A stretch of DNA of 46,546 nucleotides from Holdemania massiliensis AP2 (GTDB lineage Bacteria > Bacillota_I > Bacilli_A > Erysipelotrichales > Erysipelotrichaceae). Under the pieces are notes generated by a model. It made no database searches. It was not told the origin of the DNA and saw only the letters and a list, made by a program, of their open reading frames with translations. Shown here piece by piece: positions 21,293 through 40,891 of the stretch (its first letter is position 1; every line of letters starts with the position of its first letter). Where the stretch lies: positions 265,068 to 311,613 of the forward strand of contig NZ_HE998569.1 of the NCBI RefSeq assembly GCF_000327285.1, given 5' to 3'. Both the position numbers and the translations under genes were made by a program.

Positions 21293-21306
21293 GAGAAGGA
21301 GGCTGA

Positions 21307-22749: not shown

Positions 22750-22779
22750 TTCTTATGATCTTGAATGGGAAAGGAATTT

Positions 22780-25514: not shown

Positions 25515-25543
25515 TTGACAACGCTTACATCCTCTGCTAGAAT
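25515..25543 (+). promoter_or_regulatory. Promoter for licT-EIIBC-M81-1
   Basis: Consensus TTGACA (25515-25520) with a 17-base spacer to TAGAAT (25538-25543). Transcription should start near 25550, just before the RAT/terminator leader. The stretch 25395-25514 shows no gene. Confidence 0.85.
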
Positions 25544-25564
25544 GAAATCAACAAGTAAATATTG

Positions 25565-25634
25565 GGACTGTCACTCTTTCGAGGCATAACCTAAATAAGC
25601 GATTATTTTGTGTGTGCCGAGGAAGAGTTTTTTT
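25565..25634 (+). promoter_or_regulatory. LicT-type RAT antiterminator with overlapping terminator (leader 1)
   Basis: The RAT-like element runs from GGACTGTCACT to GGCATAACC (25565-25591). The terminator pairs ACTCTTTCGAGGCA (25573-25586) with TGCCGAGGAAGAGT (25615-25628; two mismatches in the middle and one G-U), followed by a T-run to 25634. The two structures share the same bases, so RNA binding by the antiterminator would block the terminator. The element is close in sequence to leader 2 at 37427-37506. Confidence 0.8.
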
Positions 25635-25751
25635 GTTTGTTGTGCCGGAAAATTTTAAGTTCAGAAGTGAGTTGGAAGATCTGAAACAGAAAGTGAAATC
25701 AACAGTAAGGGAATAACAAAGTACGATTATTTCAGAAAAGGGTAAATGATG

Positions 25752-26570
25752 ATGAAAATTATTAGAAAAATCAATAACAATTACGCTTTAGCACGAAAAC
25801 GCGACGGTGAAGTGGTTGTCGTAGCTGGCCGCGGAATCGGCTTCGGAACCATTCCTCGCTATGTGACCGATGAATCGCAGATTGAAAAAATATACAGCGG
25901 TGTAGACCGAAACTATATCGAACAAATGGGAGAAATGCCGGAGAATATTCTTAAACTCTCAGAAAAAATCGTAGCCTATGCGAAGAAAAATCTGACGAAA
26001 AAGTTTTCTAAAAACTTTGTATTTACACTGGCAGATCACATTGAATTTACGATTGAACGCATTGCACAGAACATGATCTTTGATTTCAAAGGTTATTATG
26101 ACTTTAAATACTTATATCCGCGGGAAGTCGAAATTTCCAAATACGCGATGAAAATGATTGAAGAAGAATTAAAAATCAAGCTTCCTGAATCAGAATTGGG
26201 CGGCTTTGTTATGAATATTGTCAATTCTGAACTGAAGCCATCAGGCAACGATGAAGATGTTAACTTCTCACCGCTGATCAGTCAGATTACAGTCATTATT
26301 GAAAAATATTTCAACCTTGAAATCAACCGCGATTCGTTTAATTATTCCCGGTTTGCAACACACATGATCTATTTGCTGAGACGTTTGAAGGATGGCAAAA
26401 AGACCTCGGATGACAACCGCCGGATTTATGAAAAACTGTTGGAAGAATATCCCGACACCTATCGTTGTGTCGATGAAATCGCCCGTTTCCTTGAACAGAA
26501 CATCCAGTCCAAACTCGATGAAAATGAAATGCTGTACCTGATCCTGCACGTCAACCGCCTTTGTTCTTAG
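25752..26570 (+). CDS. licT-like: BglG/LicT family transcriptional antiterminator
   Basis: A protein of about 272 residues with a CAT RNA-binding domain (about residues 1-55, MKIIRKINNNYALA and GIGFG), PRD1 (about 65-170) and PRD2 (about 180-272). PTS-regulated histidines are present in PRD1 (LADHIEF) and in PRD2 (RFATHMIY, YLILHVNR). The second PRD1 position, usually ALHIVN, reads VMNIVN, so that histidine is Asn, which may alter control. Three ATG codons at 25746, 25749 and 25752 follow AAAAGGG; 25752 is best spaced. It is preceded by its own RAT/terminator leader, so it is autoregulated, and it is co-transcribed with the EIIBC gene whose activity it should sense. Confidence 0.9.
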   Translation: MKIIRKINNNYALARKRDGEVVVVAGRGIGFGTIPRYVTDESQIEKIYSGVDRNYIEQMGEMPENILKLSEKIVAYAKKNLTKKFSKNFVFTLADHIEFTIERIAQNMIFDFKGYYDFKYLYPREVEISKYAMKMIEEELKIKLPESELGGFVMNIVNSELKPSGNDEDVNFSPLISQITVIIEKYFNLEINRDSFNYSRFATHMIYLLRRLKDGKKTSDDNRRIYEKLLEEYPDTYRCVDEIARFLEQNIQSKLDENEMLYLILHVNRLCS

Positions 26571-26648
26571 CCATGGATCCCAGGTCATCAACAGAGTAAG
26601 AGCGCGCCTTATTCCTGTTATGAAATATTGCTAAAGGAGGATTTTGAG

Positions 26649-28040
26649 ATGGGAAAATATGCTGAATTTTCTCAAAAAGTTTTAGAAAACGTCGGGGGAT
26701 TGGACAATATTACCTTTGTTGCCCATTGTGCCACAAGACTACGGATTAGCTATGCCGACGGCAGTAAAATCAACGAAGCAGCGATTAAGGCGCTCCCGGA
26801 ATGTGCGGGAATTGTAAAAAAAGCCAATCAGCTTCAGATTATTATTGGTCCGCAGGTACCGGATGCTTACTACGATTTTCTGGAAGTTTCCGGTTGGAAA
26901 GAAGGCATGAATGAAAATGCCGTCAATGTTCCAAAAGAGAAAAAGTCAATTCTGGATTTGATTGCCGATTTCTTCCCGCCGATCTTCATGCCGATTATGC
27001 CGGCACTGGTCGTTGGCGGTATGGTTTTAGCCATTCGTACATTATGCGTCAACTATTTCGGTCTGGATGTTTCCAGCGGAACAGCCCAATTGTTAACCTG
27101 TTTCTTCAATGCCGGATTTGAATTCCTGCCGATCTACATTGGTTACTCGTATGCGCAGAAACTGAAGCTGCAGCCAATTCTCGGCATGTTCTTGGGCGGG
27201 GTTCTGGTCTGCTCACGTTATCAAAGCGGAGTGGTTACTGATTTTTTAGGACTGCCGATTGAACAGGTCAGCTATTCCTCAACGATTATTCCGGTCATCT
27301 TAGGTACGACATTGATTTACTTCCTGGATAAATACCTGAAGAAAATCATTCCCAACGCCGTTATTTACTTCGTAAAACCAGTAGTAACGATGCTGATTGT
27401 TGTCCCGGTTACATTCTTATGGCTTGGCCCGTTAGGCACATGGCTGAGTACTTACATCGGTTATTTTGTCACCTTCTTAATGGACACGCTGGGTGTCTTT
27501 GCCCTGCCGATCCTGTGTGCACTGTGTCCATACTTCGTCATGTTTGGTGTGGATAAAGCACTTTCCCCACTGGGAATTGAACTGCTTGCTACTTTGGGTT
27601 ACAACAACATCACAGCTCCGCAGAACTTCATTTCCAACATTGGCGTCGGTGCGGTAGCTTTGGCCATCGCCTATTCCGCCGTTGTCCGCAAAGACAAAGT
27701 TAAGCGCGGCATGATCGTGTCCACAGCCATCACAGCGCTGTGCGGCGTTACTGAACCTGCATTCTACGGGTCACTGATCTCACTGAAAGAAGCTTTAATC
27801 GGACATGCGATCGGGACGGTGATCGGCGGCTTTGTCGGTGCCCTGTTTGGCTTAAGAACCTACATTTCCGCTTCCTGCCCAGGCTTCTTAACTTTCCTGT
27901 CATTTATCAATCCGGAAACCGGAAGTCTGCAGATGGTCTGGTATGCAGCGATTACGGCAGCGGTTACGGTTGTAGCCTGCTTTATGGCAACTTCGATTTT
28001 AATCAAGCGTTCCGAAAGCAAGAAAGCGATTGCCGGATAA
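26649..28040 (+). CDS. PTS EIIBC, glucose/beta-glucoside superfamily, without IIA
   Basis: The 463-residue protein has an N-terminal IIB domain with phospho-cysteine C27 in AHCATRLRI, then an EIIC domain with about ten membrane segments (about residues 105-460, including FFPPIFMPIMPALVVGGM and CGVTEPAFYG). It has no C-terminal IIA domain, as in MurP and SacP types, and must use a separate Crr-type IIA; one is encoded at 37517-37972 under a matching RAT leader. ATG 26649 has AAAGGAGG at 26633-26640. The substrate is unknown. Its position directly before six M81 hydrolase genes suggests a sugar carrying an amide or peptide moiety, for example an N-acyl amino sugar or muropeptide-like compound; that is speculative. 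Confidence 0.9.
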   Translation: MGKYAEFSQKVLENVGGLDNITFVAHCATRLRISYADGSKINEAAIKALPECAGIVKKANQLQIIIGPQVPDAYYDFLEVSGWKEGMNENAVNVPKEKKSILDLIADFFPPIFMPIMPALVVGGMVLAIRTLCVNYFGLDVSSGTAQLLTCFFNAGFEFLPIYIGYSYAQKLKLQPILGMFLGGVLVCSRYQSGVVTDFLGLPIEQVSYSSTIIPVILGTTLIYFLDKYLKKIIPNAVIYFVKPVVTMLIVVPVTFLWLGPLGTWLSTYIGYFVTFLMDTLGVFALPILCALCPYFVMFGVDKALSPLGIELLATLGYNNITAPQNFISNIGVGAVALAIAYSAVVRKDKVKRGMIVSTAITALCGVTEPAFYGSLISLKEALIGHAIGTVIGGFVGALFGLRTYISASCPGFLTFLSFINPETGSLQMVWYAAITAAVTVVACFMATSILIKRSESKKAIAG

Positions 28041-28059
28041 ACCAGAAAGAAGGAAAACG

Positions 28060-29502
28060 ATGAAAGTATTAGTCGGACTGTTCAACGCGGAATGCAATGC
28101 GAATATTCCCCTCACCAGTGATTTAAGTGACTTTGATCTGGCGTTTAAAGATCAGGTCATCGAGAAGATGTATGTCCGCGAGATCTACGATCAGGCTGGG
28201 GTGGAGATCATTCCGGCGGTCTATGCCAATGCCGGGGCAACCGGGATTGTGGAAAAATCAGCATTTGAATCAATTGAAAACAGTTTTCTGGCTGTCATTC
28301 AAAAACATCTGCATGAATTGGACGGGATTTATCTGCATCTGCATGGCGCCAGCTATGTGGAAGAGATCGGCAGCGGTGATCATCATCTGTTAAGCATGAT
28401 TCGCCGGCTTGTCGGCCCGTATCTGCCGATTGCGGTTTCTTGTGATCCGCATGGCAATCTGACCCAAGAGTATGCCGAGGCGATTCAGATTCTGCGCAGT
28501 TTTCGGGAATCACCGCATACGGACAACGTTGATACTTATCGAAAAGTTTCGCAGATGCTTTGCGATTTCATCCGTCAACGTCAGACGATTCATTCCGTTT
28601 ACCGCAAACTGCCGTTGATTTTAGGCGGCGAACAGTCGGTATCGGCAGATGAGCCGGTGCGGTCGATCAATCAGTTTATGGATCAGATGGAAGAAGATCC
28701 GCGGATTTTGAGTGCTTCCTGGCATGTCGGCTATCTGCGGCATGATTGTCCGGAAGCGGGCTGCGGCATCGTTGTTGTCCCGAAAACTGAGGCGGATCAG
28801 GCATATGCGGAAACGAAGGCGGATGAGCTGGCCGATTACGTTTGGCAGCGCCGGCGGGAGTTTCATTATACGGGACTCACGGCTCAGCCAGAGGAAGCGC
28901 TGCAGATGGCATTGGATTTCGCAGGCCGTCCGGTGGTTATCACGGACTCCGGAGATAACATGACTTCCGGCGCCGCCGGTTGGAATACCTTTATTTTAAG
29001 ACAATGCCTGGCAATTCCGAATTTAAAGAAAAGCATTCTGTTTGCACCGATTGTCGATCCGAAGGCTTACGCCCATCTGAAAGATCACAAAGTCGGACAG
29101 ACCGAAACAATCGATTTGGGAATGCTGCGTGATGAACTGTCTGAAAGCGTCAGCTTGAAAGTCACAATTCGTCAGTTCAGTCAGATCTGTAAGTTTACCA
29201 ATGGGATTTATGAGCGGGAAATGACTGAATGCGTCCTGGTGCATCTGGAAGGCACAACCATCGATGTGCTGATTGCCAATCTTTCCTACGCCGTGATCAA
29301 CCGTTACCAGCTGGAATATCTGGGTCTGGATTGGCGTCAATATGACATGACCGTCTTGAAGCAAGGCTATATCTTCCCGGATTTCAAAGCCGACGCGCAG
29401 TTCTATGTCATGTCGCTGACCGGCGGGGCAACGCCGCAGGATACAAAGAATATTCCGTTTAAACTGATTCAGCGTCCGATGTATCCGATTGATGAAATTT
29501 AA
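28060..29502 (+). CDS. M81 family metallohydrolase, paralog 1
   Basis: A 480-residue MlrC-like enzyme without a signal peptide. The N-terminal domain holds AECNAN (Glu near residue 9), YLHLHGASYVEEIGSGDHH, and the metal motif D129-P-H131 with H153 in SPHTD. The spacing (D-x-H, then His 22 residues on) equals that of MlrC D167/H169/H191, from memory. The ILGGEQSVSADEPVRSIN block and RHDCPEAGCG follow, and the C-terminal domain has TDSGDNMTSGAAGWNTF. M81 members cleave peptide or amide bonds of small substrates. It follows EIIBC by 19 bases, under the licT leader. ATG 28060 is preferred for its AGAAGGAAA site. It differs from the other paralogs in reading NMTSGAA where most have NTTSGAT. Confidence 0.88.
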   Translation: MKVLVGLFNAECNANIPLTSDLSDFDLAFKDQVIEKMYVREIYDQAGVEIIPAVYANAGATGIVEKSAFESIENSFLAVIQKHLHELDGIYLHLHGASYVEEIGSGDHHLLSMIRRLVGPYLPIAVSCDPHGNLTQEYAEAIQILRSFRESPHTDNVDTYRKVSQMLCDFIRQRQTIHSVYRKLPLILGGEQSVSADEPVRSINQFMDQMEEDPRILSASWHVGYLRHDCPEAGCGIVVVPKTEADQAYAETKADELADYVWQRRREFHYTGLTAQPEEALQMALDFAGRPVVITDSGDNMTSGAAGWNTFILRQCLAIPNLKKSILFAPIVDPKAYAHLKDHKVGQTETIDLGMLRDELSESVSLKVTIRQFSQICKFTNGIYEREMTECVLVHLEGTTIDVLIANLSYAVINRYQLEYLGLDWRQYDMTVLKQGYIFPDFKADAQFYVMSLTGGATPQDTKNIPFKLIQRPMYPIDEI

Positions 29503-29513
29503 CTGAAAGAAAA

Positions 29514-29580
29514 GGCGGCGGTCCTCCCTTTTCCGCTGCCCTTCCTTTCCATCATTCGGATCCGTCACTGCTTCGGATCT
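29514..29580 (+). terminator. Two weak hairpins after M81 paralog 1
   Basis: GGCGGCGG (29514-29521) pairs with CCGCTGCC (29533-29540), and GATCCG (29559-29564) pairs with CGGATC (29574-29579), followed by TTTAAAAAA. Neither has a full T-run; they may form a leaky terminator or processing site. Confidence 0.4.
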
Positions 29581-29587
29581 TTAAAAA

Positions 29588-29624
29588 AGGTTCTGTTGGC
29601 TTCCATGCGAACCGATGAGAACCT
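29588..29624 (+). promoter_or_regulatory. Leader hairpin before M81 paralog 2
   Basis: AGGTTCT (29588-29594) pairs exactly with AGAACCT (29618-29624), with a partial inner stem (TTGG/AACC region). It sits 35 bases upstream of the ATG. No T-run follows, and I see no promoter nearby. It may regulate or stabilise the M81-2 message; the function is unknown. Confidence 0.35.
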
Positions 29625-29659
29625 GTTCACAATTTTGAGCGAATGAAGGAGGGCTTTGT

Positions 29660-31105
29660 ATGAAGATTTTAGTCGGTGAATTTGTTTCTGAAACTAACGA
29701 AAATATACCGCAGCGCTGCCGTATCAATAACTATGTGATCGCCTTTGACGATCAGTGCATTCAAAATCTGAACATCAGTGAAGTGTATGAATCGGAAAAT
29801 GCGGAAATGATTCCGACCATTTATGCCAACGGTGCCAGCGGTGGATTGATTACGCCGGAAACGTTTGCCTATATCGAAACTTCGCTGCTGAATGAAGTAA
29901 AAAAACATCTGAATGAAATCGATGGGATCTTCCTGATGCTTCATGGCGCCAGTAAGGTTGAGGGCCTGGGCAGCGGGGACCATCATATTATTCAGGAGGT
30001 GCGCAAGCTGGTTGGCCCGTATTTGCCGATTGCTGTCGCCTGTGACCCGCATGGCAATCTGACTCAGGAATATGTTGAGTCACTGCAGATTATCCGCAGT
30101 TATCGCCAGTCACCGCATACCGATGCCAATGAAACACTGCGCATCGTTTCAAAAATGTTGATCGATCTGGTCCGCTCACGTCAGAATATACACGCTGTCT
30201 ACCGCAAGCTGCCATTAATCTTAGGTGGGGAACAATCCGTGTCCACAGATGAACCGGTGCTTTCCATCAATCGATATATGGACGAATTGGAACAGGATCC
30301 GCGGATCTTAAGCGCTTCTTGGCATGTTGGTTATCTGCGGCATGATTGTCCGGAAGCCGGATGCGGGATTGTCGTCGTACCGGCTTCTGAAGCGGATCAG
30401 GACTATGCAGAAACGATGGCTGATCAGCTGGCAGATTATGTCTGGCAGCGGCGTCATGAGTTCCACTATACAGGCTTGACGGCAGAACCGGAAGAAGCGC
30501 TGGAAATGGCGCTGAACTATGACGGCAAACCAGTTGTCATTACGGATTCCGGCGATAATACCACATCGGGGGCTACGGGCTGGAATACGTTTGTGCTGCG
30601 TCAGGTACTGGCTGAAAAGAACTTGAAAAAGCAGGTGCTGTTCGCAACAATTTGTGATCCGAAAACATTTAATCAGCTTCAGAAGTTGTCAGTCGGAGAT
30701 TCTGCCGCAATTCGTTTAGGAATGGATTATGACGAATTATCGAAAGCGGTTGACCTGGAAGTGGTCGTTAAAGCGAAAGGCCCGATCACCGGGTTTATGA
30801 TGCACAACATTCCGGGAACGGTGTATGGCGAAACGATCAGCGTGACGGTCAAAAACAGCCCGATCACGATCATGATCGCTACGACCAGCTATGCGATCTG
30901 TGAAATTCATCAGTTTGCCGATGCCGGTCTGAACTTTGATGATTATGACGTTATCATCGTTAAACAGGGCTATATTTTCCCAGAACTGAAGGCCGCGGCG
31001 AAATTTTATGTGATGTCGCTGACCGACGGAGCGACGCTGCAGGATACACGCCGATTGACCTATAAGCAGATCATGCGGCCGATGTATCCGATCGACGAGA
31101 TCTGA
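29660..31105 (+). CDS. M81 family metallohydrolase, paralog 2
   Basis: A protein of 481 residues with FVSETNENIP at the N-terminus, D129-P-H131 and H153 in SPHTD, GGEQSVSTDEP, and TDSGDNTTSGATGWNTF in the C-terminal domain, ending RPMYPIDEI like its paralogs. The start has AAGGAGGG upstream. It differs in the middle of the C-terminal domain (about residues 355-400, KGPITGFMMHNIPGTVYGE) and in reading FLMLHGASKVEGL where paralogs 1, 4 and 5 have YLHLHGAS, so its specificity may differ. It appears to form its own transcription unit, bounded by hairpins upstream and a terminator at 31145-31195. Confidence 0.88.
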   Translation: MKILVGEFVSETNENIPQRCRINNYVIAFDDQCIQNLNISEVYESENAEMIPTIYANGASGGLITPETFAYIETSLLNEVKKHLNEIDGIFLMLHGASKVEGLGSGDHHIIQEVRKLVGPYLPIAVACDPHGNLTQEYVESLQIIRSYRQSPHTDANETLRIVSKMLIDLVRSRQNIHAVYRKLPLILGGEQSVSTDEPVLSINRYMDELEQDPRILSASWHVGYLRHDCPEAGCGIVVVPASEADQDYAETMADQLADYVWQRRHEFHYTGLTAEPEEALEMALNYDGKPVVITDSGDNTTSGATGWNTFVLRQVLAEKNLKKQVLFATICDPKTFNQLQKLSVGDSAAIRLGMDYDELSKAVDLEVVVKAKGPITGFMMHNIPGTVYGETISVTVKNSPITIMIATTSYAICEIHQFADAGLNFDDYDVIIVKQGYIFPELKAAAKFYVMSLTDGATLQDTRRLTYKQIMRPMYPIDEI

Positions 31106-31144
31106 CGGTTTTCCACAACTCCCATCATTGAAGCTTATGAAGAA

Positions 31145-31195
31145 AACAGCCTGGTCTGACGGACATCGTTCATAAGACCCGGCTGTTGTTTTATT
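31145..31195 (+). terminator. Terminator after M81 paralog 2
   Basis: AACAGCCTGGTCT (31145-31157) pairs with AGACCCGGCTGTT (31175-31187) with one mismatch, followed by GTTTTATTC. A 17-base loop makes it moderately strong. Confidence 0.7.
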
Positions 31196-31223
31196 CAGAT
31201 AGAAAGAATAGGTGAGGTGTAGT

Positions 31224-32675
31224 ATGAAAGTCTTGATCGGACATTTTACGACAGAAGCCAATGCTCATATCCCGATGAAAAACAATCTGTCCCATTATGA
31301 ACTGGCCTTCGGCGAGGAATTAATCGAACGCATGAAGGTAAGGGAAGTCTTTGAGCAAGCTGGGATTGAAATCATCCCTTCGATTTATGCCGGCGGCGGA
31401 CCTTCCGGGGTCATCGAAAAAGAAACTTTTCTGACGATTGAGAATTCGCTGCTTTCAACAATTAAAAAACATAAACACGAAATTGACGGAATTTACTTAT
31501 GGCTGCATGGTGCGAGCTGGGTGGAGGACATCGGCAGCGGTGATTTTCATATCATTGCGAAAATCCGGGAACTGGTTGGGCCTTATCTGCCAATTGCTGT
31601 GTCCTGCGATCCGCATGGAAACCTGACGGAAGACTATGTTCATTCGCTGCAGATTCTGCGCAGCTTCCGCCAGTCGCCGCACACTGATATGGTTGAAACA
31701 TACCGCAAAGTCGCAGCTATGTTATGCGACCTTCTGAAGAATCGGCAGCACATCCATCCCGCTTATCGCAAACTGCCGTTAATTCTGGGTGGGGAACAGT
31801 CGGTCTCGGCGGATGAACCGGTGCGCTCGATCAATGCCTATATGGATCAGCTGGAACAAGATCCGCGCATTCGCAGTGTGTCCTGGCATGTCGGCTATCT
31901 GCGCCATGACTGCCCGGAAGCGGGCTGCGGAGTAGTCGTAGTTCCGCAGACTGAGGCCGATCAGGCCTACGCGGAAGCTATTTGTGGTAAACTGGCGGAT
32001 TACGTCTGGCAGCGCCGTCATGAATTTCATTATACCGGTACGACGGCTGATCCGGAAGCCGCGCTGCAGATGGCACTGAACTTTGAAGGCAAACCATTTG
32101 TCTTGACGGATTCCGGTGACAACACCACTTCCGGGGCAACCGGTTGGAATACCTTTGTCCTCAGACAATTTTTAGCTCTCCCAGAATTGAATAAAAGCGT
32201 GCTGTTTGCAGGGATCTGTGATCCTAAGACCTGTGCTGAGCTGCGGATGAAACAGATCGGCGACGCGGTTGAGGCGACATTGGGCGTGGGTGAGGATGAG
32301 CTGTCCAAACCGGTGAGGCTTGAAGGCGTGATTCAGGCCAAGGGGGATGTGATTCGCATTGCGGCATTGGGACGGGATGAGTATACGGTCATGGGACACT
32401 GTGTAAGCCTCACGTTAACCGATCGGCCGATGACGGTGATCATTACTGATCATCGGCAGGCCTATTGTCATACGCTGCAGTTTGAGCATGCTGGAATCAC
32501 AGACTGGACACAGTTTGCGATTACGGTTGTGAAGCAGGGCTATATTTTTCCGGAACTGAAGGCCGCCGCTCAGGGTTATGTCATGTCGCTGACCGAGGGA
32601 GCAACGCCGCAGGATACGAAGAATATTCCATTTAAACAGATCCAGCGTCCGATGTATCCGATTGACGAGATTTAA
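31224..32675 (+). CDS. M81 family metallohydrolase, paralog 3
   Basis: A protein of 483 residues, FTTEANAHIP at the N-terminus, YLWLHGASWVEDIGSGDFH, metal motif D129-P-H131 and H153, GGEQSVSADEP and TDSGDNTTSGATGWNTF. The best start is ATG 31224 with AGGTGAGG upstream; the frame opens with a GTG at 31212. Paralog 4 follows after only 10 bases, so both are in one operon, and the pair likely continues into the AEC transporter. The variable part is around residues 365-395 (KGDVIRIAALGRDEYTV). No signal peptide, so it is cytoplasmic. Confidence 0.88.
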   Translation: MKVLIGHFTTEANAHIPMKNNLSHYELAFGEELIERMKVREVFEQAGIEIIPSIYAGGGPSGVIEKETFLTIENSLLSTIKKHKHEIDGIYLWLHGASWVEDIGSGDFHIIAKIRELVGPYLPIAVSCDPHGNLTEDYVHSLQILRSFRQSPHTDMVETYRKVAAMLCDLLKNRQHIHPAYRKLPLILGGEQSVSADEPVRSINAYMDQLEQDPRIRSVSWHVGYLRHDCPEAGCGVVVVPQTEADQAYAEAICGKLADYVWQRRHEFHYTGTTADPEAALQMALNFEGKPFVLTDSGDNTTSGATGWNTFVLRQFLALPELNKSVLFAGICDPKTCAELRMKQIGDAVEATLGVGEDELSKPVRLEGVIQAKGDVIRIAALGRDEYTVMGHCVSLTLTDRPMTVIITDHRQAYCHTLQFEHAGITDWTQFAITVVKQGYIFPELKAAAQGYVMSLTEGATPQDTKNIPFKQIQRPMYPIDEI

Positions 32676-32685
32676 GGGGGTAGTT

Positions 32686-34149
32686 ATGAAAATATTAATT
32701 GGTTTTTTTGCAACAGAAGTCAATGAGCATATTCCCTGCATGACAGACTTGTCAAGTTATGATCTGGTTTTTGGCGAAAGCATTGCCGAACGCATGCAGT
32801 TGGGAGACGTTTTAAAACAGGAAGGAGCGGAGATGATTCCTTCGGTCTATGCGAAATCATCGCCCAACGGAATCATTGAAACGGCGGCTTTTGAAACGAT
32901 TGAAAACAGTCTGTTGAGGGCTGTGCGCAGCCACCGCCATGAGATTGACGGCATCTATCTGCATCTGCATGGCGCCAGTTATGTGGAAGGCATTGGCAGT
33001 GGTGATTTCCACATTCTGAAGGAAGTCCGCAAGCTGGTTGGACCCTATCTTCCGATCGCGGTTTCGTGCGATCCGCATGGGAATCTGAACGAGGACTATG
33101 TTCGATCGATGCAGATTCTGCGCAGTTATCGTGAATCACCGCATACCGACATGATTGCTACCTGGCAGAAAACACTGCGGATGCTTTGTGAACTGGTGCG
33201 TCAGCGGCAAGGAATCTGCCCAGCTTATCGCAAGCTGCCGTTGATTTTAGGCGGTGAACAGTCGGTATCGGCAGATGAACCGGTGCGCTCGATCAATGCT
33301 TATATGAATCAGCTGGAACAAGATCCGCGGATCATGAGCGCGTCCTGGCACGTCGGCTATCTGCGCCATGATTGTCCGGAAGCTGGCTGTGGGGTGGTGG
33401 TTGTTCCGCAGACCGAAGCGGATCAGGCGTATGCCGATCAGATGTGCGCCCAGCTGGCCGATTTTGTCTGGCAGCGGCGCCGGGAATTTCATTATACCGG
33501 CATCACCGCTGAGCCTGAAGCCGCCTTGAAGATGGCACTGGATTTTGCCGGCAAGCCGTTTGTGCTTACGGATTCCGGGGATAACACAACCTCCGGGGCA
33601 ACCGGCTGGAATACGTTCGTTCTGCGGCAGTTTCTGGCCGTGGACAAGTTAGACAAAAGAGTATTGTTCGCTGCGATTGTGGATCCGGTTTGCGTCCAGT
33701 CGCTGCTTCAGCAGAAACCAGGAGCACAGATCCCAATTCAATTGGGCATGAACGTTGACGCTCTTTCTCAAGCGGTAGAATTAAACGTCGAACTGATCGC
33801 GAAAGGGGAAGTGGTACGGACACTGTCCTTTGCCCCGGGGGAGGATGGCCTAGCTTCCAAAGCTGGCGACTGCGTGCTGGTGCGGCTGACGGAGCATCCG
33901 ATTGATATCATCATTGCCAATCATAAACTCAGTTATTTTAAAACGGTTCAGTATGAACACGCCGGGGTTGAAGATTGGACACAGTACGATATCGTCGTCG
34001 TGAAGCAGGGCTATATTTTCCCAGAACTCAAGGCTGCGGCCCAAGGGTACGTGATGTCGCTGACCGACGGGGCAACGCCGCAGGATACTAAGCACATTCC
34101 GTTTAAGTTGGTACGGCGGCCGATGTTTCCGCTCGATGATATGGATTAA
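32686..34149 (+). CDS. M81 family metallohydrolase, paralog 4
   Basis: A protein of 487 residues, FATEVNEHIP at the N-terminus, metal motif D129-P-H131 and H153, GGEQSVSADEP, RHDCPEAGCG and TDSGDNTTSGATGWNTF. The ATG at 32686 is right behind GGGGG at 32676-32680, 10 bases after the paralog 3 stop, implying coupled translation. Over the GGEQSVSADEPVRSIN block its DNA is nearly identical to paralog 1 (compare 28616-28672 with 33241-33297), suggesting recent duplication or gene conversion. It ends RPMFPLDDMD, slightly different from the RPMYPIDEI end of paralogs 1-3 and 5. Confidence 0.88.
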   Translation: MKILIGFFATEVNEHIPCMTDLSSYDLVFGESIAERMQLGDVLKQEGAEMIPSVYAKSSPNGIIETAAFETIENSLLRAVRSHRHEIDGIYLHLHGASYVEGIGSGDFHILKEVRKLVGPYLPIAVSCDPHGNLNEDYVRSMQILRSYRESPHTDMIATWQKTLRMLCELVRQRQGICPAYRKLPLILGGEQSVSADEPVRSINAYMNQLEQDPRIMSASWHVGYLRHDCPEAGCGVVVVPQTEADQAYADQMCAQLADFVWQRRREFHYTGITAEPEAALKMALDFAGKPFVLTDSGDNTTSGATGWNTFVLRQFLAVDKLDKRVLFAAIVDPVCVQSLLQQKPGAQIPIQLGMNVDALSQAVELNVELIAKGEVVRTLSFAPGEDGLASKAGDCVLVRLTEHPIDIIIANHKLSYFKTVQYEHAGVEDWTQYDIVVVKQGYIFPELKAAAQGYVMSLTDGATPQDTKHIPFKLVRRPMFPLDDMD

Positions 34150-34224
34150 AAACCTTTCACTGCCCAAGACTCAAACCCAACAGAGAGAGTACGATGGGGC
34201 AGGGTCAGGAAATCAGGGAGGATT

Positions 34225-35151
34225 ATGACAACGATTTTAATCAATACGCAGCTTACCATTGTCACCTATCTGATCGTCGGTTTTTTCTTATCCAAAACCG
34301 GTCTGATCGACGGACAGGCACAGCTGTTTATCTCTAATCTGACGATCAACGTCCTGCTTCCCGCCAGTGTTTTTACTTCCTTTCTGACCGGGATGTCGAT
34401 GGACCTGTTGATTTCGCTGGGAACCATTTTGATCCTGGCGATTTTGCTTGAAGTCTTTTTGAGTCTGGCTAGTAAAATACCCAGCTCGCGTTTTACACCG
34501 AGTGAGGCCTGTGTAGCTCATTATGGTTATCTTGTCAGCAACGGCGGCTTAATCGGCACGCCGGTCATTGAATCCCTGTTTGGACCGGTCGGCGTCATGT
34601 GCTGCAATGTCTTTATGATTCCGACACGAATTATGGCGTTCAGCGCGGGGGAAAGTATTTTCAATCCTTCGCTGAAGCGAACACCGAAAGCGATTCTGTT
34701 TTCCATACTGACCAATAAAATTCTCGTTGTGATGGCCCTGGGGTTGGTGATGATCGGTTTCCATCTGTCCCTGCCCTCGCCGGTTCTGACAGCTTTGCAG
34801 AAGATCGGCGGCTGCCTTGCACCGTTTTCACTGATTTTGGTGGGAAGCATGCTGGCGCAGAAAGTGAAGCTGAACGCGGCGATGATTAAAAATGTCGCCT
34901 GGATCACCCTGATACGGCTGCTGGCCATACCGCTGGCGGCTCTAAGCATCTGTCTGCTTTTGCACCTGGATTTTCAGACGACGGCGGTGATCACGCTGCT
35001 GATGGGGATGCCGGTCGGCAGTTCCTGTGCCAGCTTCGCAAAGAAATATCGCGGTAATGAAGCCTTCGCGTCAGCGGTTGTACTGATCTCGACGCTGCTT
35101 TCTACCATGACCCTAGTTTTATTGATGAAATTGATTGAGCTCGCATTTTGA
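34225..35151 (+). CDS. AEC (auxin efflux carrier) family permease
   Basis: A 308-residue integral membrane protein with about ten hydrophobic helices. It has the typical N-terminal half (VTYLIVGFFLSKTGLI, TINVLLPASVFTSFL) and the internal break with SNGGLIGTPVIESLFGPVG. Bacterial AEC carriers move dicarboxylates, auxin-like acids or other organic anions. ATG 34225 follows AGGGAGG. Lying between paralogs 4 and 5, it probably exports or imports a product or substrate of the M81 enzymes, such as an organic acid set free by amide cleavage. That link rests on position only. Confidence 0.88.
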   Translation: MTTILINTQLTIVTYLIVGFFLSKTGLIDGQAQLFISNLTINVLLPASVFTSFLTGMSMDLLISLGTILILAILLEVFLSLASKIPSSRFTPSEACVAHYGYLVSNGGLIGTPVIESLFGPVGVMCCNVFMIPTRIMAFSAGESIFNPSLKRTPKAILFSILTNKILVVMALGLVMIGFHLSLPSPVLTALQKIGGCLAPFSLILVGSMLAQKVKLNAAMIKNVAWITLIRLLAIPLAALSICLLLHLDFQTTAVITLLMGMPVGSSCASFAKKYRGNEAFASAVVLISTLLSTMTLVLLMKLIELAF

Positions 35152-35193
35152 TGGAATGTAAGAATCAAACAAAAGAAAGAAGGAAAGTCCATG

Positions 35194-36636
35194 ATGAAAG
35201 TTCTGGTCGGCAGTTTTACCACTGAGTCCAATGCCAAAGCCCCATACAAAACCTTAATTCAAAATTATGATCTGGCAACCGGCGAGGCGCTGATCGATGT
35301 GATGGAAATTCGGGAAGCCTTTGCCGGGAAAAAGGTAGAGATTATCCCGGGTGTCTATGCCAATGCCAACGCGGCCAGCGTCGTCGATAAGAAAACATTT
35401 TTGCTGATTGAATCCATGCTTTTAAACAGTGTACGGGAACATCTGCATGAAATCGACGGGATTTATCTGCATCTGCATGGCGCCAGCTGGGTTGAGGAAA
35501 TCGGCAGCGGCGACCATCACATCATTCAGGAAATCCGCCGTTTAGTCGGCCCATATCTGCCGATCGCCGTTTCCTGCGATCCGCATGGAAATCTGACAAA
35601 AACATATGTCGAATCCCTGCAGATTCTGCGCAGTTATCGTGAAAGTCCGCATACCGATGCCATGGAAACCCGCCGTCAGGTAGCGGAAATGTTGTGCGAT
35701 TTGATCCAGCAGCGGCAAACGATTCATGCCGTTTATCGCAAACTGCCGTTAATTCTGGGCGGAGAACAGTCAGTTTCGGCGGATGAACCGGTTCGTTCCA
35801 TTAACCGTTATATGGATGAGCTGGAACAGGATCCGCGCATCCGCAGCGTATCCTGGCATGTCGGCTATCTGCGTCATGACTGCCCGGAAGCCGGCTGCGG
35901 CATCGTAGTCGTACCGCAGAAACAGGAAGATCAGGCCTATGCGGAAACACTGGCTGACCAGCTGGCCGAATATGTTTGGAATAAACGGCATGAGTTTCAT
36001 TATACCGGCTTGACGGCCGAACCGGAAGAAGCACTGACGATGGCTTTAAATTTTGAAGGCAAGCCGTTTGTGATCACTGATTCCGGGGATAATACAACCT
36101 CCGGTGCTACCGGCTGGAATACCTTTGTCCTCAGGCAGTTCTTAGCTGTCAAAGATCTGAAAAAAACGGTCCTGTTTGCTTCTCTCTGTGATCCGCAGGC
36201 GTTTAAGCAGCTGGCAGCGGCGGATTTGGAAGAAACGGTGACGCTTGCGTTAGGCACAGGTTATGATGAATTGTCAGCGCCGGTCTCCCTGACATGTAAG
36301 CCGCTGGCCCGGGCGCCGATTCCGATTTCGCATGGCGAGGTGACAATCGGAACACGTGGGGAAGGAATCCTGGCGCATGTTGAGAACACCACCCTTGATA
36401 TTCTTGTCGCTGATCAAACGGCTCGCGTTACCAATGAAAGTCTGTTTGCGGCTTTTGGTATCGATTGGAAAGACTATGATATCACAGTATTGAAACAAGG
36501 CTACATTTTCCCGGATTTTAAACAGGGAGCACAAGGCTATGTGATGTCGCTGACCGACGGAGCGACGCCGCAGGATACCCGGCATATTCCGTTTAAATTA
36601 ATTCAGCGCCCGATGTATCCGATTGATGAAATATAA
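35194..36636 (+). CDS. M81 family metallohydrolase, paralog 5
   Basis: A protein of 480 residues with FTTESNAKAP at the N-terminus, YLHLHGASWVEEIGSGDHH, metal motif D129-P-H131 and H153, GGEQSVSADEP, RHDCPEAGCG and TDSGDNTTSGATGWNTF. ATG codons stand at 35191 and 35194 behind AAGGAAAG; 35194 gives the MKVL start shared by the paralogs. The variable segment near residues 365-400 (LARAPIPISHGEVTIGTRG) is unlike the other copies. It is 42 bases after the AEC gene and 44 before the membrane protein, so all three are probably in one operon. Confidence 0.88.
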   Translation: MKVLVGSFTTESNAKAPYKTLIQNYDLATGEALIDVMEIREAFAGKKVEIIPGVYANANAASVVDKKTFLLIESMLLNSVREHLHEIDGIYLHLHGASWVEEIGSGDHHIIQEIRRLVGPYLPIAVSCDPHGNLTKTYVESLQILRSYRESPHTDAMETRRQVAEMLCDLIQQRQTIHAVYRKLPLILGGEQSVSADEPVRSINRYMDELEQDPRIRSVSWHVGYLRHDCPEAGCGIVVVPQKQEDQAYAETLADQLAEYVWNKRHEFHYTGLTAEPEEALTMALNFEGKPFVITDSGDNTTSGATGWNTFVLRQFLAVKDLKKTVLFASLCDPQAFKQLAAADLEETVTLALGTGYDELSAPVSLTCKPLARAPIPISHGEVTIGTRGEGILAHVENTTLDILVADQTARVTNESLFAAFGIDWKDYDITVLKQGYIFPDFKQGAQGYVMSLTDGATPQDTRHIPFKLIQRPMYPIDEI

Positions 36637-36680
36637 TTCGGGCCGGACTCAACCCTAGAAGCGAAAGCGAGGAAGAAACC

Positions 36681-37259
36681 ATGACTAAAAGGAAAGCAAA
36701 GTTAAAAACTTCAAAGCCGAAAACCAAGACGGCCTATCCGGATATCAACGGAATGTTCATTTATCATGACTCACTGCATCGGATTGTCTATGCGCCGTTA
36801 TTCTCCAAGCGCGGCTATTTGATTCCCAAAAGTCAGATTGATGAGTTTTACCGCTATACGCAGCGGACGATGATTTCTGTCTTTATTGGACTGGCAGCGA
36901 CCGTGTTGCTGGGAATGAATGCCTTCGATGGTTTCTTTCTCGGTTTTCTCGTCTACCTCGTCTGGACCGGTTATTTTTCAGTTAAATTTTTAAATCAGCT
37001 GGCGACGGTTGAACCTTTTGTCCGTCCGAAAAAAGAAAATTATTTCATTACGCTGTCACGCAAATATTCCGTGCCGACCTTTGTGGGGTTGATTGGACTG
37101 AGTCTGATCTTTGTCCTGCTTATCGGAATTTACACGTGGACAACACCGCTCAGTAGCACGGAGTTTTATACCAATCTGATTCTGATCGGCGGCGTCGGTC
37201 TTTTCGCCGCTGTGCATGGAATCGGTTTGTTTCTGCAGCTGCATGCGGCGCGGGCCTGA
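36681..37259 (+). CDS. Four-helix membrane protein of unknown function
   Basis: This 192-residue protein has a lysine-rich cytoplasmic N-terminus (TKRKAKLKTSKPKTKTAY), two hydrophobic segments at about residues 65-110 and two more at about 130-190. I do not recognise a family. ATG 36681 has GAGGAAG upstream. It closes the AEC-M81-5 operon. The pairing of helices in two hairpins and the basic N-terminus suggest an anchor or small permease partner, but nothing more can be said. Confidence 0.7.
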   Translation: MTKRKAKLKTSKPKTKTAYPDINGMFIYHDSLHRIVYAPLFSKRGYLIPKSQIDEFYRYTQRTMISVFIGLAATVLLGMNAFDGFFLGFLVYLVWTGYFSVKFLNQLATVEPFVRPKKENYFITLSRKYSVPTFVGLIGLSLIFVLLIGIYTWTTPLSSTEFYTNLILIGGVGLFAAVHGIGLFLQLHAARA

Positions 37260-37385
37260 TGATGGAGATCACATCGGATCGAGCCTGACAAAGCCGTGAT
37301 GAAAGAAATTAAAACAAGGTCTTTCTGCCGTGCTGAAAGCAGCGGTATTCAGACATTGTGAAGAAATATCAGTAAACTCAAAGAG

Positions 37386-37414
37386 TTGACTTTCAAGGTG
37401 GGATCGCTTACAAT
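37386..37414 (+). promoter_or_regulatory. Promoter for EIIA-M81-6-M24
   Basis: TTGACT (37386-37391) with a 17-base spacer to TACAAT (37409-37414). Transcription should begin near 37421, directly before the RAT element. The region 37260-37385 has no gene. Confidence 0.8.
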
Positions 37415-37426
37415 GAGTTCAAGGTT

Positions 37427-37506
37427 GGACTGTTATTGTTGATTCAACAAGCATAACCAATTTGCATTCAGTTTTAGGCTGTCTTGCAGATTGGTTTTTA
37501 TTATTT
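37427..37506 (+). promoter_or_regulatory. LicT-type RAT antiterminator with overlapping terminator (leader 2)
   Basis: The RAT-like element (37427-37458) begins GGACTGTTATTG and ends GCATAACC, the same frame as leader 1. The terminator pairs AACCAATTTGCA (37455-37466) with TGCAGATTGGTT (37485-37496, one G-U), followed by TTTATTATTT. The last bases of the RAT form the first bases of the terminator stem, so the two are mutually exclusive. The arrangement is the classic LicT/SacY switch. Confidence 0.85.
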
Positions 37507-37516
37507 GGGAGGTTTT

Positions 37517-37972
37517 ATGACAGAATGGATTGGAAGCCCTGTCGCGGGCAAGGGAAAGCGATTAGAAGAACTGAATGATGAAATGTTTGCCAGCCGGGCA
37601 TTGGGCGACGGGTTTGCCGTCAAGCCTCCGGAATTGTTTGCGAAAAAGGAAGTGGTCAGTCCGGCGGAGGGCGAAGTCACGATGGTTTACGAAACAGGGC
37701 ATGCCTTGGGCTTGCTGACAAGCGGCGGTCATGAACTGCTGATTCATATTGGAATTGATACGGTAACGTTAAAAGGAGTACCGTTTGAAACCAAGGTGAA
37801 GGTCGGAGATCATGTTAAACAAGGCGATCTGTTATGTCTTGCAGATTGGAAGATGATGCGCCGGCACGGCTGTGATACCGATGTGATCGTGATCGCTCTG
37901 AACAGTGAAATCGGGAATCTGGCGTCCTCAGGCAAACTGAATGCTCTGGATCCGATGTTTGAAATCATGTAA
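37517..37972 (+). CDS. PTS EIIA, glucose (Crr) family, stand-alone
   Basis: A 151-residue IIA-Glc-type protein with the two active-site histidines 15 apart: H62 in TGHALGL and H77, the phosphorylated one, in LLIHIGIDTV. ATG 37517 is chosen for GGGAGG at 37507-37512; the longer frame from 37484 runs through the terminator. It supplies the IIA function missing from the EIIBC encoded at 26649-28040, and both leaders carry similar RAT elements. It is followed by M81 paralog 6 after 48 bases. The IIA gene lies more than 9 kb from its EIIBC, at the opposite end of the cluster. Confidence 0.92.
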   Translation: MTEWIGSPVAGKGKRLEELNDEMFASRALGDGFAVKPPELFAKKEVVSPAEGEVTMVYETGHALGLLTSGGHELLIHIGIDTVTLKGVPFETKVKVGDHVKQGDLLCLADWKMMRRHGCDTDVIVIALNSEIGNLASSGKLNALDPMFEIM

Positions 37973-38020
37973 AGCAGCACCTCAACTTAAGTCAAAATAA
38001 GCAAAGGAAGGATGATACGG

Positions 38021-39478
38021 ATGAAGAAAAAAGTATTGATCGGCGAGTTTATCACAGAATCCAATGCCAATGTTCCGTTTAAAAATGAAATCACAGCTTA
38101 TGATATCGCGTTCGGTGAGGAAGCTGTTGAAAAGATGCAGGTCGGCGACATCTTTGAGGCGGCTGGGATTGAAATCATTCCCGCGGTTTATGCAGTATCG
38201 GGATCGTCTGGTGTGATCAAACGGCATACTTTTGATTATATTGAAGCGTGTTTTATCAATGCGGTAAAGGCCCATCGGGATGAAATCGACGGCATTTATC
38301 TGATGCTTCACGGCGCGAGTGAGGTTGAAGGTTTAGGTTCGGGGGATCATCATATTTTGAAACGGATACGTCAGCAGGTCGGTGCTTATGTACCGATTAC
38401 GATTGCCTGTGATCCGCATGGCAATTTGTGCCGTGAATATGTGGAAGCCGCAACTGTGATCCGCAGTTACCGGGAGAGCCCGCACACCGACGCCCGCGAT
38501 ACAAAGCGGAAGATGGCTCATCGGGTCTGCGATCTGATCCGCAATCCTCAGCATATTCATGCGGTTTATCGCAAGCTGCCGTTGATCCTGGGCGGGGAAC
38601 AGTCGGTGTCGGCCGATGAACCGGTGCGCTCGATCAATGAGTATATGGATCAGCTGGAACAAGACCCGCGCATCCTGAGTTGTTCCTGGCATGTCGGCTA
38701 TATTCGGCATGATACCGATGTGGCTGGCTGCGGCATTGTCGTGGTTCCGGCAACCGAAGCTGATCAGCAATATGCTGAAACCATCGCTGATCAGCTGGCG
38801 GAGTATGTCTGGAAGAAGCGTCATGAGTTCCATTATACCGGCCGGACAGCCCAGCCGGAGGAAGCCTTAAAACTGGCGCTGGAATATCCGGGGAAACCGG
38901 TAGTCATCACGGATTCCGGGGATAATACTACTTCCGGGGCAATGGGCTGGAATACGGGGATTCTGCGGCAGATGCTGGCTGTGGAGCACTTAAAGAAAAG
39001 TGTCCTTTTTGCCTCAATCTGTGATCCGACCTCATGGAAGCAGCTGAATCCGCTGGCTGAGGGATCTACGGCAAAGATCACGCTGGGCGTGGGCTACGAC
39101 GCATTGTCAGCGGGAGTTGATTTGGAAGTCCGTGTGAAATCCAAAGGTGAGATCATACGTCTGGTCAGCTTAGGGACCGAGAGCCATTACAAAGTATTCG
39201 GCGCCTGTGTTGTCGTGAATATCGTCGGTACCCCGATTGATGTGATTGTGGCGAATCACAGGCAGTCGTATGCCAATGCTATTCAGTTTGAGAAGGCCGG
39301 CGTGGATTGGAAAAATTATGACATCACAGTAGTCAAGCAGGGATATATTTTTCCAGAGCTGAAAGACAAAGCTGAGTTTTACGTCATGTCGCTGACGGAA
39401 GGGGCGACGCTGCAGGATACTGCGCACATTCCATTTCATCGGATTCAGCGGCCAATGTTCCCGATTGATCAGATTTAA
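38021..39478 (+). CDS. M81 family metallohydrolase, paralog 6 (divergent)
   Basis: A protein of 485 residues, FITESNANVP at the N-terminus, metal motif D131-P-H133 and H155 in SPHTD, and GGEQSVSADEP. It looks the least similar of the six: the RHDCPEAGCG block reads RHDTDVAGCG (first Cys lost), VGPYLPIAV reads VGAYVPITI, and SGATGWNTFVLRQ reads SGAMGWNTGILRQ. It may therefore have a different substrate range. ATG 38021 fits AAAGGAAGG at 38003-38011 better than 38012. It lies between the EIIA gene and the M24 gene, under leader 2. Confidence 0.88.
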   Translation: MKKKVLIGEFITESNANVPFKNEITAYDIAFGEEAVEKMQVGDIFEAAGIEIIPAVYAVSGSSGVIKRHTFDYIEACFINAVKAHRDEIDGIYLMLHGASEVEGLGSGDHHILKRIRQQVGAYVPITIACDPHGNLCREYVEAATVIRSYRESPHTDARDTKRKMAHRVCDLIRNPQHIHAVYRKLPLILGGEQSVSADEPVRSINEYMDQLEQDPRILSCSWHVGYIRHDTDVAGCGIVVVPATEADQQYAETIADQLAEYVWKKRHEFHYTGRTAQPEEALKLALEYPGKPVVITDSGDNTTSGAMGWNTGILRQMLAVEHLKKSVLFASICDPTSWKQLNPLAEGSTAKITLGVGYDALSAGVDLEVRVKSKGEIIRLVSLGTESHYKVFGACVVVNIVGTPIDVIVANHRQSYANAIQFEKAGVDWKNYDITVVKQGYIFPELKDKAEFYVMSLTEGATLQDTAHIPFHRIQRPMFPIDQI

Positions 39479-39490
39479 AAGGAGCCGAGT

Positions 39491-40891
39491 ATGAGAAATT
39501 TGAAAATTGAATATAAAACCGTAAAAGCACCGCAGCCGGACGCTCCCTCTGCCCCAACAGCTTTAACCCAGGCTACGATGGAAGAACGCAAGGCCAAAGT
39601 TTTGCGGAAAATGAAAGAACGAGGAATCGAACAGCTGATTGTTTATGGCGACGTCGAGCATGGCGGAAACTTTGAATATTTGGTTGGCTACTTCACGCGC
39701 TTTGAGGAAAGTCTGTTGATTCTTAAACAGGATGGCGCGATGACGCTGATGCTTGGCAATGAGAATATGAATAAAGCGTCCAAGGCTCGTTTTCCGGCTG
39801 ATGCTGTGCATGTTTCACTGTTTTCTTTGCCCAATCAGCCCAACCGCACCGATAAAACGCTGCCCGTCTTGTTGGCGGAAGCTGGGGTGCAGCCCGGGGT
39901 ACGTACCGGAATCGTTGGCTGGAAAATGTTTACCAGTCCGATTGAACACAACAAGCAGCTGTATGATCTTCCAGCCTACGTCCTGTCCGCGATTGAACAG
40001 GTCGTTGGAAATTCCGGTTTTTGCAGCAATGAAACCGATCTGTTTATCGGTGAACAAGGCGTGCGGACAACCAACAATGCCAATGAGATTGCGCATTATG
40101 AATTCGGCGCGGCCTTGGCTTCTGACTGTATTTTGAAGGCGATGGATAAACTGGAAGTGGGAACCACGGAAATGGAATTGGCAGATGCTCTGGTGCGGTG
40201 GGGTCAGCATACCAGTGTTGTCACGATTGCCGCCAGCGGCCCCCGGTTTATTCAGGGAAATATGTTCCCGAGCGCGAATCGTGTAAAAGTAGGAGATCCG
40301 ATTTCTCTGACCGTCGGCTACCGCGGCGGATCATCCAGCCGGGCAGGTTATGCTGTGCATCACCAACAGGAATTGCCGCAGACTTGTCGGGATTATCTGA
40401 CGCGTGTAGCAAAACCTTATTTTGAAGCCTATGTTCAATGGCTGGAAACTATTCGGATAGGACTGAGCGGCAAAGCCTTATTCGATAGGATAGAAGAAGT
40501 TCTGCCGCGAAAAGAATATGGATGGAGTCTGTGCCCAGGACATTTAACTGCGGAAGAAGAATGGATGTCCTCGCCGGTTTATGAAAACTCGCAGGAAATC
40601 CTGACCAGCGGCATGATCTTTCAGATTGATATTATTCCTTCAGTTTCCGGTTATGGCGGTGTCAGTGCGGAAAGTACTGTCGTTTTGGCTGATGCCCATC
40701 TAAAACAGCAGCTGCGTGAACAATATCCTGAGATGTGGCGGCGGATGCAGCAGCGGCGGACTTATCTGATCGAAGAATTGGGGATTGCCTTGTCTGAGGA
40801 TGTGCTTCCGATGTGTTCCACAGTGGCTTATCTGCGTCCTTATCTGCTGAATAAAGATCAAGCTCTGGCTGTTGAAGCTCAATCAATTTAA
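39491..40891 (+). CDS. M24-fold protein with degenerate metal site
   Basis: A 466-residue protein with a creatinase/prolidase N-terminal domain (about residues 30-165) and a C-terminal pita-bread M24 domain (about 190-430). In M24 peptidases the first two metal ligands are Asp in a D-x-G...D pattern; here the stretch after VKVGDP reads ISLTVGYRGGSSSRAGYAVH, so both are missing. GHLTAEEEW replaces GHG-like residues and QIDIIPS stands where the metal Glu usually is. It may be metal-independent, like creatinase, or non-catalytic. It follows M81-6 by 12 bases with AAAAGGAG as ribosome site and is the last gene of the operon. Confidence 0.8.
   Translation: MRNLKIEYKTVKAPQPDAPSAPTALTQATMEERKAKVLRKMKERGIEQLIVYGDVEHGGNFEYLVGYFTRFEESLLILKQDGAMTLMLGNENMNKASKARFPADAVHVSLFSLPNQPNRTDKTLPVLLAEAGVQPGVRTGIVGWKMFTSPIEHNKQLYDLPAYVLSAIEQVVGNSGFCSNETDLFIGEQGVRTTNNANEIAHYEFGAALASDCILKAMDKLEVGTTEMELADALVRWGQHTSVVTIAASGPRFIQGNMFPSANRVKVGDPISLTVGYRGGSSSRAGYAVHHQQELPQTCRDYLTRVAKPYFEAYVQWLETIRIGLSGKALFDRIEEVLPRKEYGWSLCPGHLTAEEEWMSSPVYENSQEILTSGMIFQIDIIPSVSGYGGVSAESTVVLADAHLKQQLREQYPEMWRRMQQRRTYLIEELGIALSEDVLPMCSTVAYLRPYLLNKDQALAVEAQSI

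What the first reader, a model, noticed from the sequence alone, without database searches (positions are those of the whole stretch)
25515..40891. A PTS-linked cluster of six paralogous M81 metallohydrolases
Six full-length M81 (MlrC-like) genes alternate with EIIBC, EIIA, a LicT antiterminator, an AEC permease, a small membrane protein and an M24-fold protein. All six keep the D-x-H...H metal spacing of MlrC, while the segment around residues 355-400 differs in each. None has a signal peptide, so the substrates must be imported. M81 enzymes are little studied outside microcystin degradation, and I know of no described PTS-fed M81 array. A family of amide hydrolases for phosphorylated sugar conjugates (glycosyl amides, muropeptide-like or N-acylated sugars) would fit. 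The substrate idea is inference.
Basis: partly seen in the sequence, partly recalled or inferred. Interest (0 to 1): 0.82.

Follow-up and report, generated by a model that had tools for sequence, protein, structure and literature searches.

The report
Sugar-transporter operon carrying six MlrC-like hydrolases
A gut bacterium (Holdemania) switches on, together with a sugar-importing phosphotransferase transporter, six different copies of a zinc hydrolase family known almost only from cyanotoxin breakdown; the same pairing recurs in unrelated bacteria, which suggests an unrecognised pathway for digesting sugar-amide compounds.

Summary
Window 25515-40891 is one transcription unit: a promoter with an overlapping cre-like site, a LicT-type RAT/terminator leader, LicT, EIIBC, six full-length M81 genes, an AEC permease, a small membrane protein, EIIA and an M24-fold protein. 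The leader is unchanged in Holdemania filiformis, whereas its flanks have drifted. The genome holds a second array of nine M81 genes with its own LicT, EIIBC, EIIA and five GH1 genes. EIIBC-M81(-M24-like) recurs in Erysipelotrichaceae, Lachnospiraceae, Faecalibacterium, Collinsella, Oceanobacillus, Enterococcus and enterobacteria, usually with M81 directly after EIIBC, where the phospho-glycosidase stands in ordinary beta-glucoside operons. All M81 copies keep the MlrC zinc ligands; residues 350-425 vary. A separate M81 lineage sits with lactose-type PTS subunits, a glycosylasparaginase, M20 and CutC. I found no paper linking M81 to a PTS. Best reading: inducible, cytosolic zinc hydrolases that cut amide-type C-N bonds in PTS-imported sugar-6-phosphate conjugates, with the paralogues differing in the acyl/aglycone side. 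PTS coupling is well supported; the substrate is not proven. The M24-fold partner has lost two metal ligands and is not an ordinary M24 metallopeptidase.

The parts
25515..25543 (+). sigma-70-type promoter TTGACA-17-TAGAAT with TG before the second hexamer
   Evidence: 11 of 12 matches; conserved in H. filiformis, with diverged flanks
25516..25529 (+). cre-like (CcpA) palindrome TGACAACGCTTACA overlapping the -35 box
   Evidence: one mismatch on each strand (1.45 hits expected by chance in the whole window); one base differs in H. filiformis
25564..25591 (+). RAT-like antiterminator element GGGACTGTCACTCTTTCGAGGCATAACC
   Evidence: pattern match; identical in H. filiformis; similar element upstream of a LicT-EIIBC-M81 set in L041
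25573..25638 (+). overlapping terminator hairpin with T run, mutually exclusive with the RAT
   Evidence: fold of the leader gives -23.3 kcal/mol; identical through the T run in H. filiformis
25746..26570 (+). LicT/BglG-type antiterminator
   Evidence: CAT_RBD and two PRD domains; NF046042 217.5 bits, below the equivalog cut-off 300
26628..28040 (+). PTS EIIBC, beta-glucoside type
   Evidence: PF02378, PF00367; TIGR01995 best at 357 bits
28030..29502 (+). M81 paralogue a (an ATG lies at 28060)
   Evidence: PF07364, PF07171; start
29660..31105 (+). M81 paralogue b
   Evidence: PF07364, PF07171
31212..32675 (+). M81 paralogue c
   Evidence: PF07364, PF07171; model pLDDT 88.3; Z 36.6 to 3IUU and 7YLQ
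32662..34149 (+). M81 paralogue d
   Evidence: PF07364, PF07171
34225..35151 (+). AEC (Mem_trans) permease
   Evidence: PF03547; AEC next to the paralogue-e orthologue recurs in L061, L067 and L071
35191..36636 (+). M81 paralogue e
   Evidence: PF07364, PF07171
36681..37259 (+). 192-aa membrane protein, no known family
   Evidence: no Pfam or NCBIfam hit; three hydrophobic segments
37386..37414 (+). possible internal promoter TTGACT-17-TACAAT
   Evidence: 10 of 12 in the only long gap, 224 bp; consensus match only
37484..37972 (+). PTS EIIA (glucose superfamily)
   Evidence: PF00358
38012..39478 (+). M81 paralogue f; its orthologue follows EIIBC in other genera
   Evidence: PF07364, PF07171; tree; neighbours
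39491..40891 (+). M24-fold (pita-bread) protein, M24L, two metal ligands replaced
   Evidence: PF00557 E 4e-6; alignments; fold
40941..40963 (+). terminator-like hairpin closing the operon
   Evidence: sequence

Best explanation
This is a catabolic operon induced by its own substrate. EIIBC/EIIA import and phosphorylate a sugar conjugate. Reduced phosphorylation of LicT by the working transporter lets it bind the RAT and prevent termination, so the whole 15-kb unit is made; CcpA probably represses it on good sugars. Inside the cell the M81 enzymes, with an MlrC-type zinc site, hydrolyse an amide-type C-N bond of the imported sugar-6-phosphate conjugate, for example an N-acyl glycosylamine, glycosyl-asparagine peptide or glycosyl ureide, freeing sugar-6-phosphate (directly, or through an unstable glycosylamine phosphate) and an acid or amide. 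The paralogues share the catalytic core and differ around residues 350-425, so they would serve different acyl/aglycone parts. The AEC permease may move the released acid. M24L is a creatinase-like partner with no complete metal site. Shown: gene content, leader, conservation of zinc ligands and neighbourhood. From established knowledge: LicT/PTS control and the MlrC mechanism. Inferred: that the imported phosphorylated conjugate is the M81 substrate, that the bond is an amide next to the sugar, and the roles of AEC and M24L.
For: One unit with promoter, cre-like site, RAT/terminator and end hairpin; the leader is identical in H. filiformis while its flanks differ. M81 follows EIIBC directly (gap -11 to 191 bp) in Holdemania, Breznakia, Enterobacter, Izhakiella, Lachnospiraceae, Faecalibacterium, Collinsella, Oceanobacillus and others, whereas a sister EIIBC (61% identical) in the same genome is followed by GH1 with no M81 nearby. 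Of the 16 best hits to this EIIBC subfamily in 146 genomes, 13 lie within 4 kb of an M81. Enterobacter and Izhakiella have a single M81 and it is in EIIBC-M81-M24L, without GH1 in the neighbourhood. Zinc ligands invariant; fold is MlrC's. Nearby GH1 proteins carry S-W-x-N-G-Y-x-K-R-Y-G, the 6-phospho-glycosidase signature by my own knowledge. A separate M81 lineage is in an operon with lactose-type EIIA/EIIB and a glycosylasparaginase (best PDB hits all glycosylasparaginases, 3e-58), M20 and CutC in four genomes. M24L also occurs with another EIIBC and an allantoate amidohydrolase/N-carbamoylase M20 in ten loci.
Against: No M81 of this group has been assayed. Columns separating the PTS-linked clades from other M81 lineages in the family include no obvious phosphate-binding set, so binding of a phosphorylated sugar is not visible in sequence. 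Where GH1 enzymes are present they could remove the sugar first, leaving the aglycone to M81. Some M81 relatives have no PTS nearby. MlrC itself cleaves a peptide bond.
Confidence: 0.5

Rival explanations
1. The imported compounds are ordinary O-linked beta-glycosides whose aglycone holds an amide or lactam. The 6-phospho-glycosidases remove the sugar and M81 then cuts the aglycone, which AEC, MFS or MATE carriers export.
For: GH1 genes with a phospho-glycosidase signature stand in the nine-copy array and in many related clusters; permeases accompany M81; many paralogues would suit many aglycones.
Against: The window operon and the Enterobacter and Izhakiella operons hold no GH1, and M81 takes the place after EIIBC; the glycosylasparaginase context points to a sugar-N bond.
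Confidence: 0.25
2. M81 cleaves peptides: the clusters take up glycopeptides, and M81, M24L and M20 trim the peptide part.
For: MlrC is a peptidase; M3, M19 and M20 peptidases and a glycosylasparaginase neighbour the Faecalitalea lineage.
Against: A beta-glucoside-type EIIBC is not a known glycopeptide importer (own knowledge); M24L lacks the M24 metal site; 15 paralogues with a conserved core and one variable segment suit small-molecule selectivity better.
Confidence: 0.15
3. M81 here is not a C-N hydrolase but a zinc-dependent 6-phospho-glycosidase or esterase that replaced GH1.
For: It occupies the GH1 place after EIIBC and no M81 activity outside microcystins was found in the library.
Against: MlrC-type zinc ligands and fold are kept, and amide hydrolases are the repeated neighbours.
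Confidence: 0.08
4. The array is a chance co-location of a sugar operon with a tandemly duplicated peptidase.
For: Other lone M81 genes in the family sit beside unrelated genes such as hrcA/dnaK.
Against: Conserved order in many genera and several phyla, one leader, syntenic in H. filiformis.
Confidence: 0.02

Closest known systems
MlrC, linearised-microcystinase of Sphingomonas (M81; PDB 7YLQ; PMC9982164)
   Same: Two-domain fold (Z 36.6, 459 residues aligned, 19% identity), zinc ligands E/D/H/H and the ExN motif
   Different: 55 bits against the NCBIfam MlrC cut-off of 999; multi-copy, PTS-linked, in gut anaerobes; substrate unknown
Beta-glucoside PTS operons bglG-bglF-bglB / LicT-controlled operons
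   Same: LicT-type antiterminator, RAT/terminator leader, EIIBC of the beta-glucoside subfamily, EIIA
   Different: M81 instead of (or besides) the 6-phospho-beta-glucosidase after EIIBC; EIIA on its own; M24-fold partner
Glycosylasparaginase (aspartylglucosaminidase) routes
   Same: In Faecalitalea and three other genomes an M81 shares an operon with a glycosylasparaginase and lactose-type PTS subunits; also an amide bond to the anomeric nitrogen
   Different: The window has no glycosylasparaginase in the operon; that M81 lineage is only 42-45% identical to window paralogue b
Glucose-ureide splitting by Clostridium innocuum (Mohr 1999, cited in PMC12046600 and PMC9942572)
   Same: Same bacterial class; cleavage of a sugar-N-carbonyl bond by a gut bacterium
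   Different: I found no gene assigned to it; not tested whether C. innocuum has this module
Creatinase/prolidase (M24, pita-bread fold) for M24L
   Same: Fold; His351, Asp380 and Glu394 at metal-site positions
   Different: The two metal Asp are Thr274 and Ser283

Membership tests
M81 (MlrC-like) hydrolases | N-terminal PF07364 and C-terminal PF07171 domains | tested here: met
   all six over the curated cut-offs
M81 (MlrC-like) hydrolases | Zinc ligands equivalent to MlrC E39, D167, H169, H191 | tested here: met
   D133, H135, H157 aligned with MlrC, E15 by the ExN motif; invariant in 92 sequences; MlrC residues from PMC9982164
M81 (MlrC-like) hydrolases | General base equivalent to MlrC E70 | tested here: inconclusive
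M81 (MlrC-like) hydrolases | Amide/peptide bond hydrolysis | not testable with these tools
   needs purified enzyme
Microcystinase MlrC proper (NF041767) | Score over the NCBIfam cut-off of 999 bits | tested here: not met
   55 bits for the two paralogues scanned
Beta-glucoside-type PTS | EIIB + EIIC of the glucose superfamily with EIIA | tested here: met
   PF00367, PF02378, PF00358; best subfamily TIGR01995
Beta-glucoside-type PTS | Score over the TIGR01995 subfamily cut-off (614.7) | tested here: not met
   357 bits; the model covers a fused IIABC, whereas here EIIA is a separate protein
LicT/BglG antitermination | CAT_RBD + two PRD domains and a RAT/terminator in the leader | tested here: met
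M24 metallopeptidase | Pita-bread fold | tested here: met
   prolidases, creatinases and related enzymes lead the Foldseek list
M24 metallopeptidase | Five metal ligands D, D, H, E, E | tested here: not met
   T274, S283, H351, D380, E394 by alignment with 1pv9; T274 and S283 are invariant in A1

The most novel reading that the evidence does not exclude
A widespread, undescribed PTS pathway for sugar-amide (N-glycosyl) conjugates, in which M81 zinc hydrolases replace phospho-glycosidases and have expanded to 15-16 copies in Holdemania to read different acyl groups.
Probability: 0.35. Interest if true: 0.82.

Novelty: new variant of a known kind. Interest (0 to 1): 0.6.

Why it matters
M81 enzymes are hardly characterised outside microcystin breakdown. 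If they act on PTS-imported sugar amides, gut anaerobes have an unrecognised route to compounds such as glycosyl amides, N-glycan stubs or glycosyl ureides, and an open case (glucose-ureide splitting by a gut Erysipelotrichia member, no gene found here) becomes testable. The single-copy EIIBC-M81-M24L operon in Enterobacter gives a simple model.

Tried and rejected
Muropeptide uptake: the EIIBC fits MurNAc models much worse than beta-glucoside ones. Phosphate-pocket signature: no group-specific set of basic residues separates PTS-linked from other M81 clades. Rfam: no hit in the region; the RAT was found by pattern, after a stricter consensus gave nothing. Fold search beyond M81: only 3IUU and 7YLQ stand out (Z 36.6); the next rows (Z about 10) are common Rossmann-like domains. 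M24L as a marker specific to M81 clusters: rejected, 47 of 78 named loci have neither M81, M20, EIIBC nor GH1 nearby. Collinsella 'amidase' gene downstream: it is gatA next to gatB, so not evidence for a shared theme. Papers on M81 with PTS, Holdemania or beta-glucosides: none relevant. The model has no coordinates in the Python box, so the six pockets were not compared in 3D.

Full report
What is there. Window 25515-40891 contains LicT, EIIBC, four M81 genes, an AEC permease, a fifth M81, a 192-aa membrane protein without known family, EIIA, a sixth M81 and an M24-fold protein, all on the + strand. Gaps are -14 to 157 bp except one of 224 bp before EIIA, which holds a possible internal promoter. 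The unit starts with an 11-of-12 promoter, an overlapping cre-like palindrome and a RAT/terminator leader, and ends in a terminator-like hairpin. That is the footprint of functional control, so the M81 genes are very probably induced together with the transporter.

The genome. The same genome holds 15 M81 genes: six here and nine in C2:591-623 kb, with LicT, EIIBC, EIIA, M24L, AEC, AbrB, MFS, MATE, an M20 and five GH1 genes. H. filiformis has 15 or 16 and a third species of the genus 10; a fourth genome of the genus has none. Arrays of 9-11 occur in three other genera of the family. In a phylum-wide draw only 11 of 392 genomes have any M81, so M81 is rare and the arrays rarer.

The association. 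M24L relatives in named genomes led to 80 loci. Of 78 that could be read, 19 have M81 within 8 kb and 10 have an M20 in its place, mostly with another EIIBC. EIIBC, M81 and M24L occur together in Enterobacter, Izhakiella, Oceanobacillus, Enterococcus, Breznakia, Dielma, Lachnospiraceae, Faecalibacterium and Collinsella, with variations in order. A search of 146 family genomes with the EIIBC subfamily gave 16 strong hits; 13 are within 4 kb of M81. The three others are not: one is an EIIA-LicT-EIIBC-GH1 operon in the window's own genome, and two (in G097 and G053) lack M81 downstream. The rows of the EIIBC profile were taken from M81 clusters, but the genomes searched were not. The tree shows the window's paralogues a, c and d as an expansion seen only in this genus among the genomes sampled, while b, e and f group with copies from other genera.

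Enzymes. The six M81 keep the MlrC zinc ligands and the model matches 3IUU and 7YLQ over the whole length. Residues 350-425 average 31% identity among the six against 66% for the rest; this stretch includes and follows the residue aligned with MlrC S392, one of the substrate-binding residues listed in PMC9982164. The link to substrate selectivity is inference. Most GH1 proteins near M81 carry the S...K.Y motif of 6-phospho-glycosidases (the meaning of the motif is my own knowledge). M24L has the pita-bread fold but Thr and Ser for the two metal Asp.

What it most likely does. The transporter, its control and the place of M81 after EIIBC argue that M81 acts on the imported phosphorylated conjugate. 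The chemistry is read from MlrC and from the company M81 keeps: glycosylasparaginase with lactose-type PTS subunits in Faecalitalea and three more genomes, and, next to M24L, an M20 of the allantoate amidohydrolase/N-carbamoylase family, which is also present in the nine-copy array. A ceramidase-like protein, weakly matched, stands in related GH1/PTS clusters and at window 14578-15870. I therefore favour amide-type C-N bonds near the sugar (0.5). Cutting the aglycone after GH1 is the main rival (0.25).

Known or new. M81, the beta-glucoside PTS and LicT control are each known. I found no paper that links M81 to a PTS in the library searched; subscription papers are mostly absent from it. Glucose-ureide splitting is known for Clostridium innocuum; a connection is only a suggestion.

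Noticed in passing
L036 7969-13087; also L037, L038, L039: Operon of M81, lactose-type EIIA and EIIB, glycosylasparaginase, M20 and CutC, beside divergent M3 and M19 peptidases: looks like a PTS-linked glycosyl-asparagine pathway.
   Followed up: partly
L100-L103, L105, L106, L108-L110, L113: M24L next to an M20 of the allantoate amidohydrolase/N-carbamoylase family, mostly with a maltose/glucose/GlcNAc-type EIIBC, EIIA and RpiR: a second PTS-amidohydrolase module.
   Followed up: partly
window 12304-24255: RpiR regulators, GH1, a weakly matched ceramidase-like protein (14578-15870), GH1, lactose-type PTS, GH1 and an arylsulfatase-like protein; sulfatase relatives recur next to PTS/GH1 in L052 and L158.
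   Followed up: partly
window 596-5071: 1491-aa protein with TPR, SUFU, DUF7832 and DUF4253 domains.
   Followed up: no
window 7187-9070 (-): Bro-N/KilAC antirepressor and a DUF6017 protein: probable remnant of a mobile element.
   Followed up: no
L154 10508-15127: EIIA-LicT-EIIBC-GH1 operon with a sister EIIBC (61%) and no M81: the ordinary form for comparison.
   Followed up: yes
L052 5410-6678: Group II intron maturase ORF between a sulfatase and an M81 gene.
   Followed up: no
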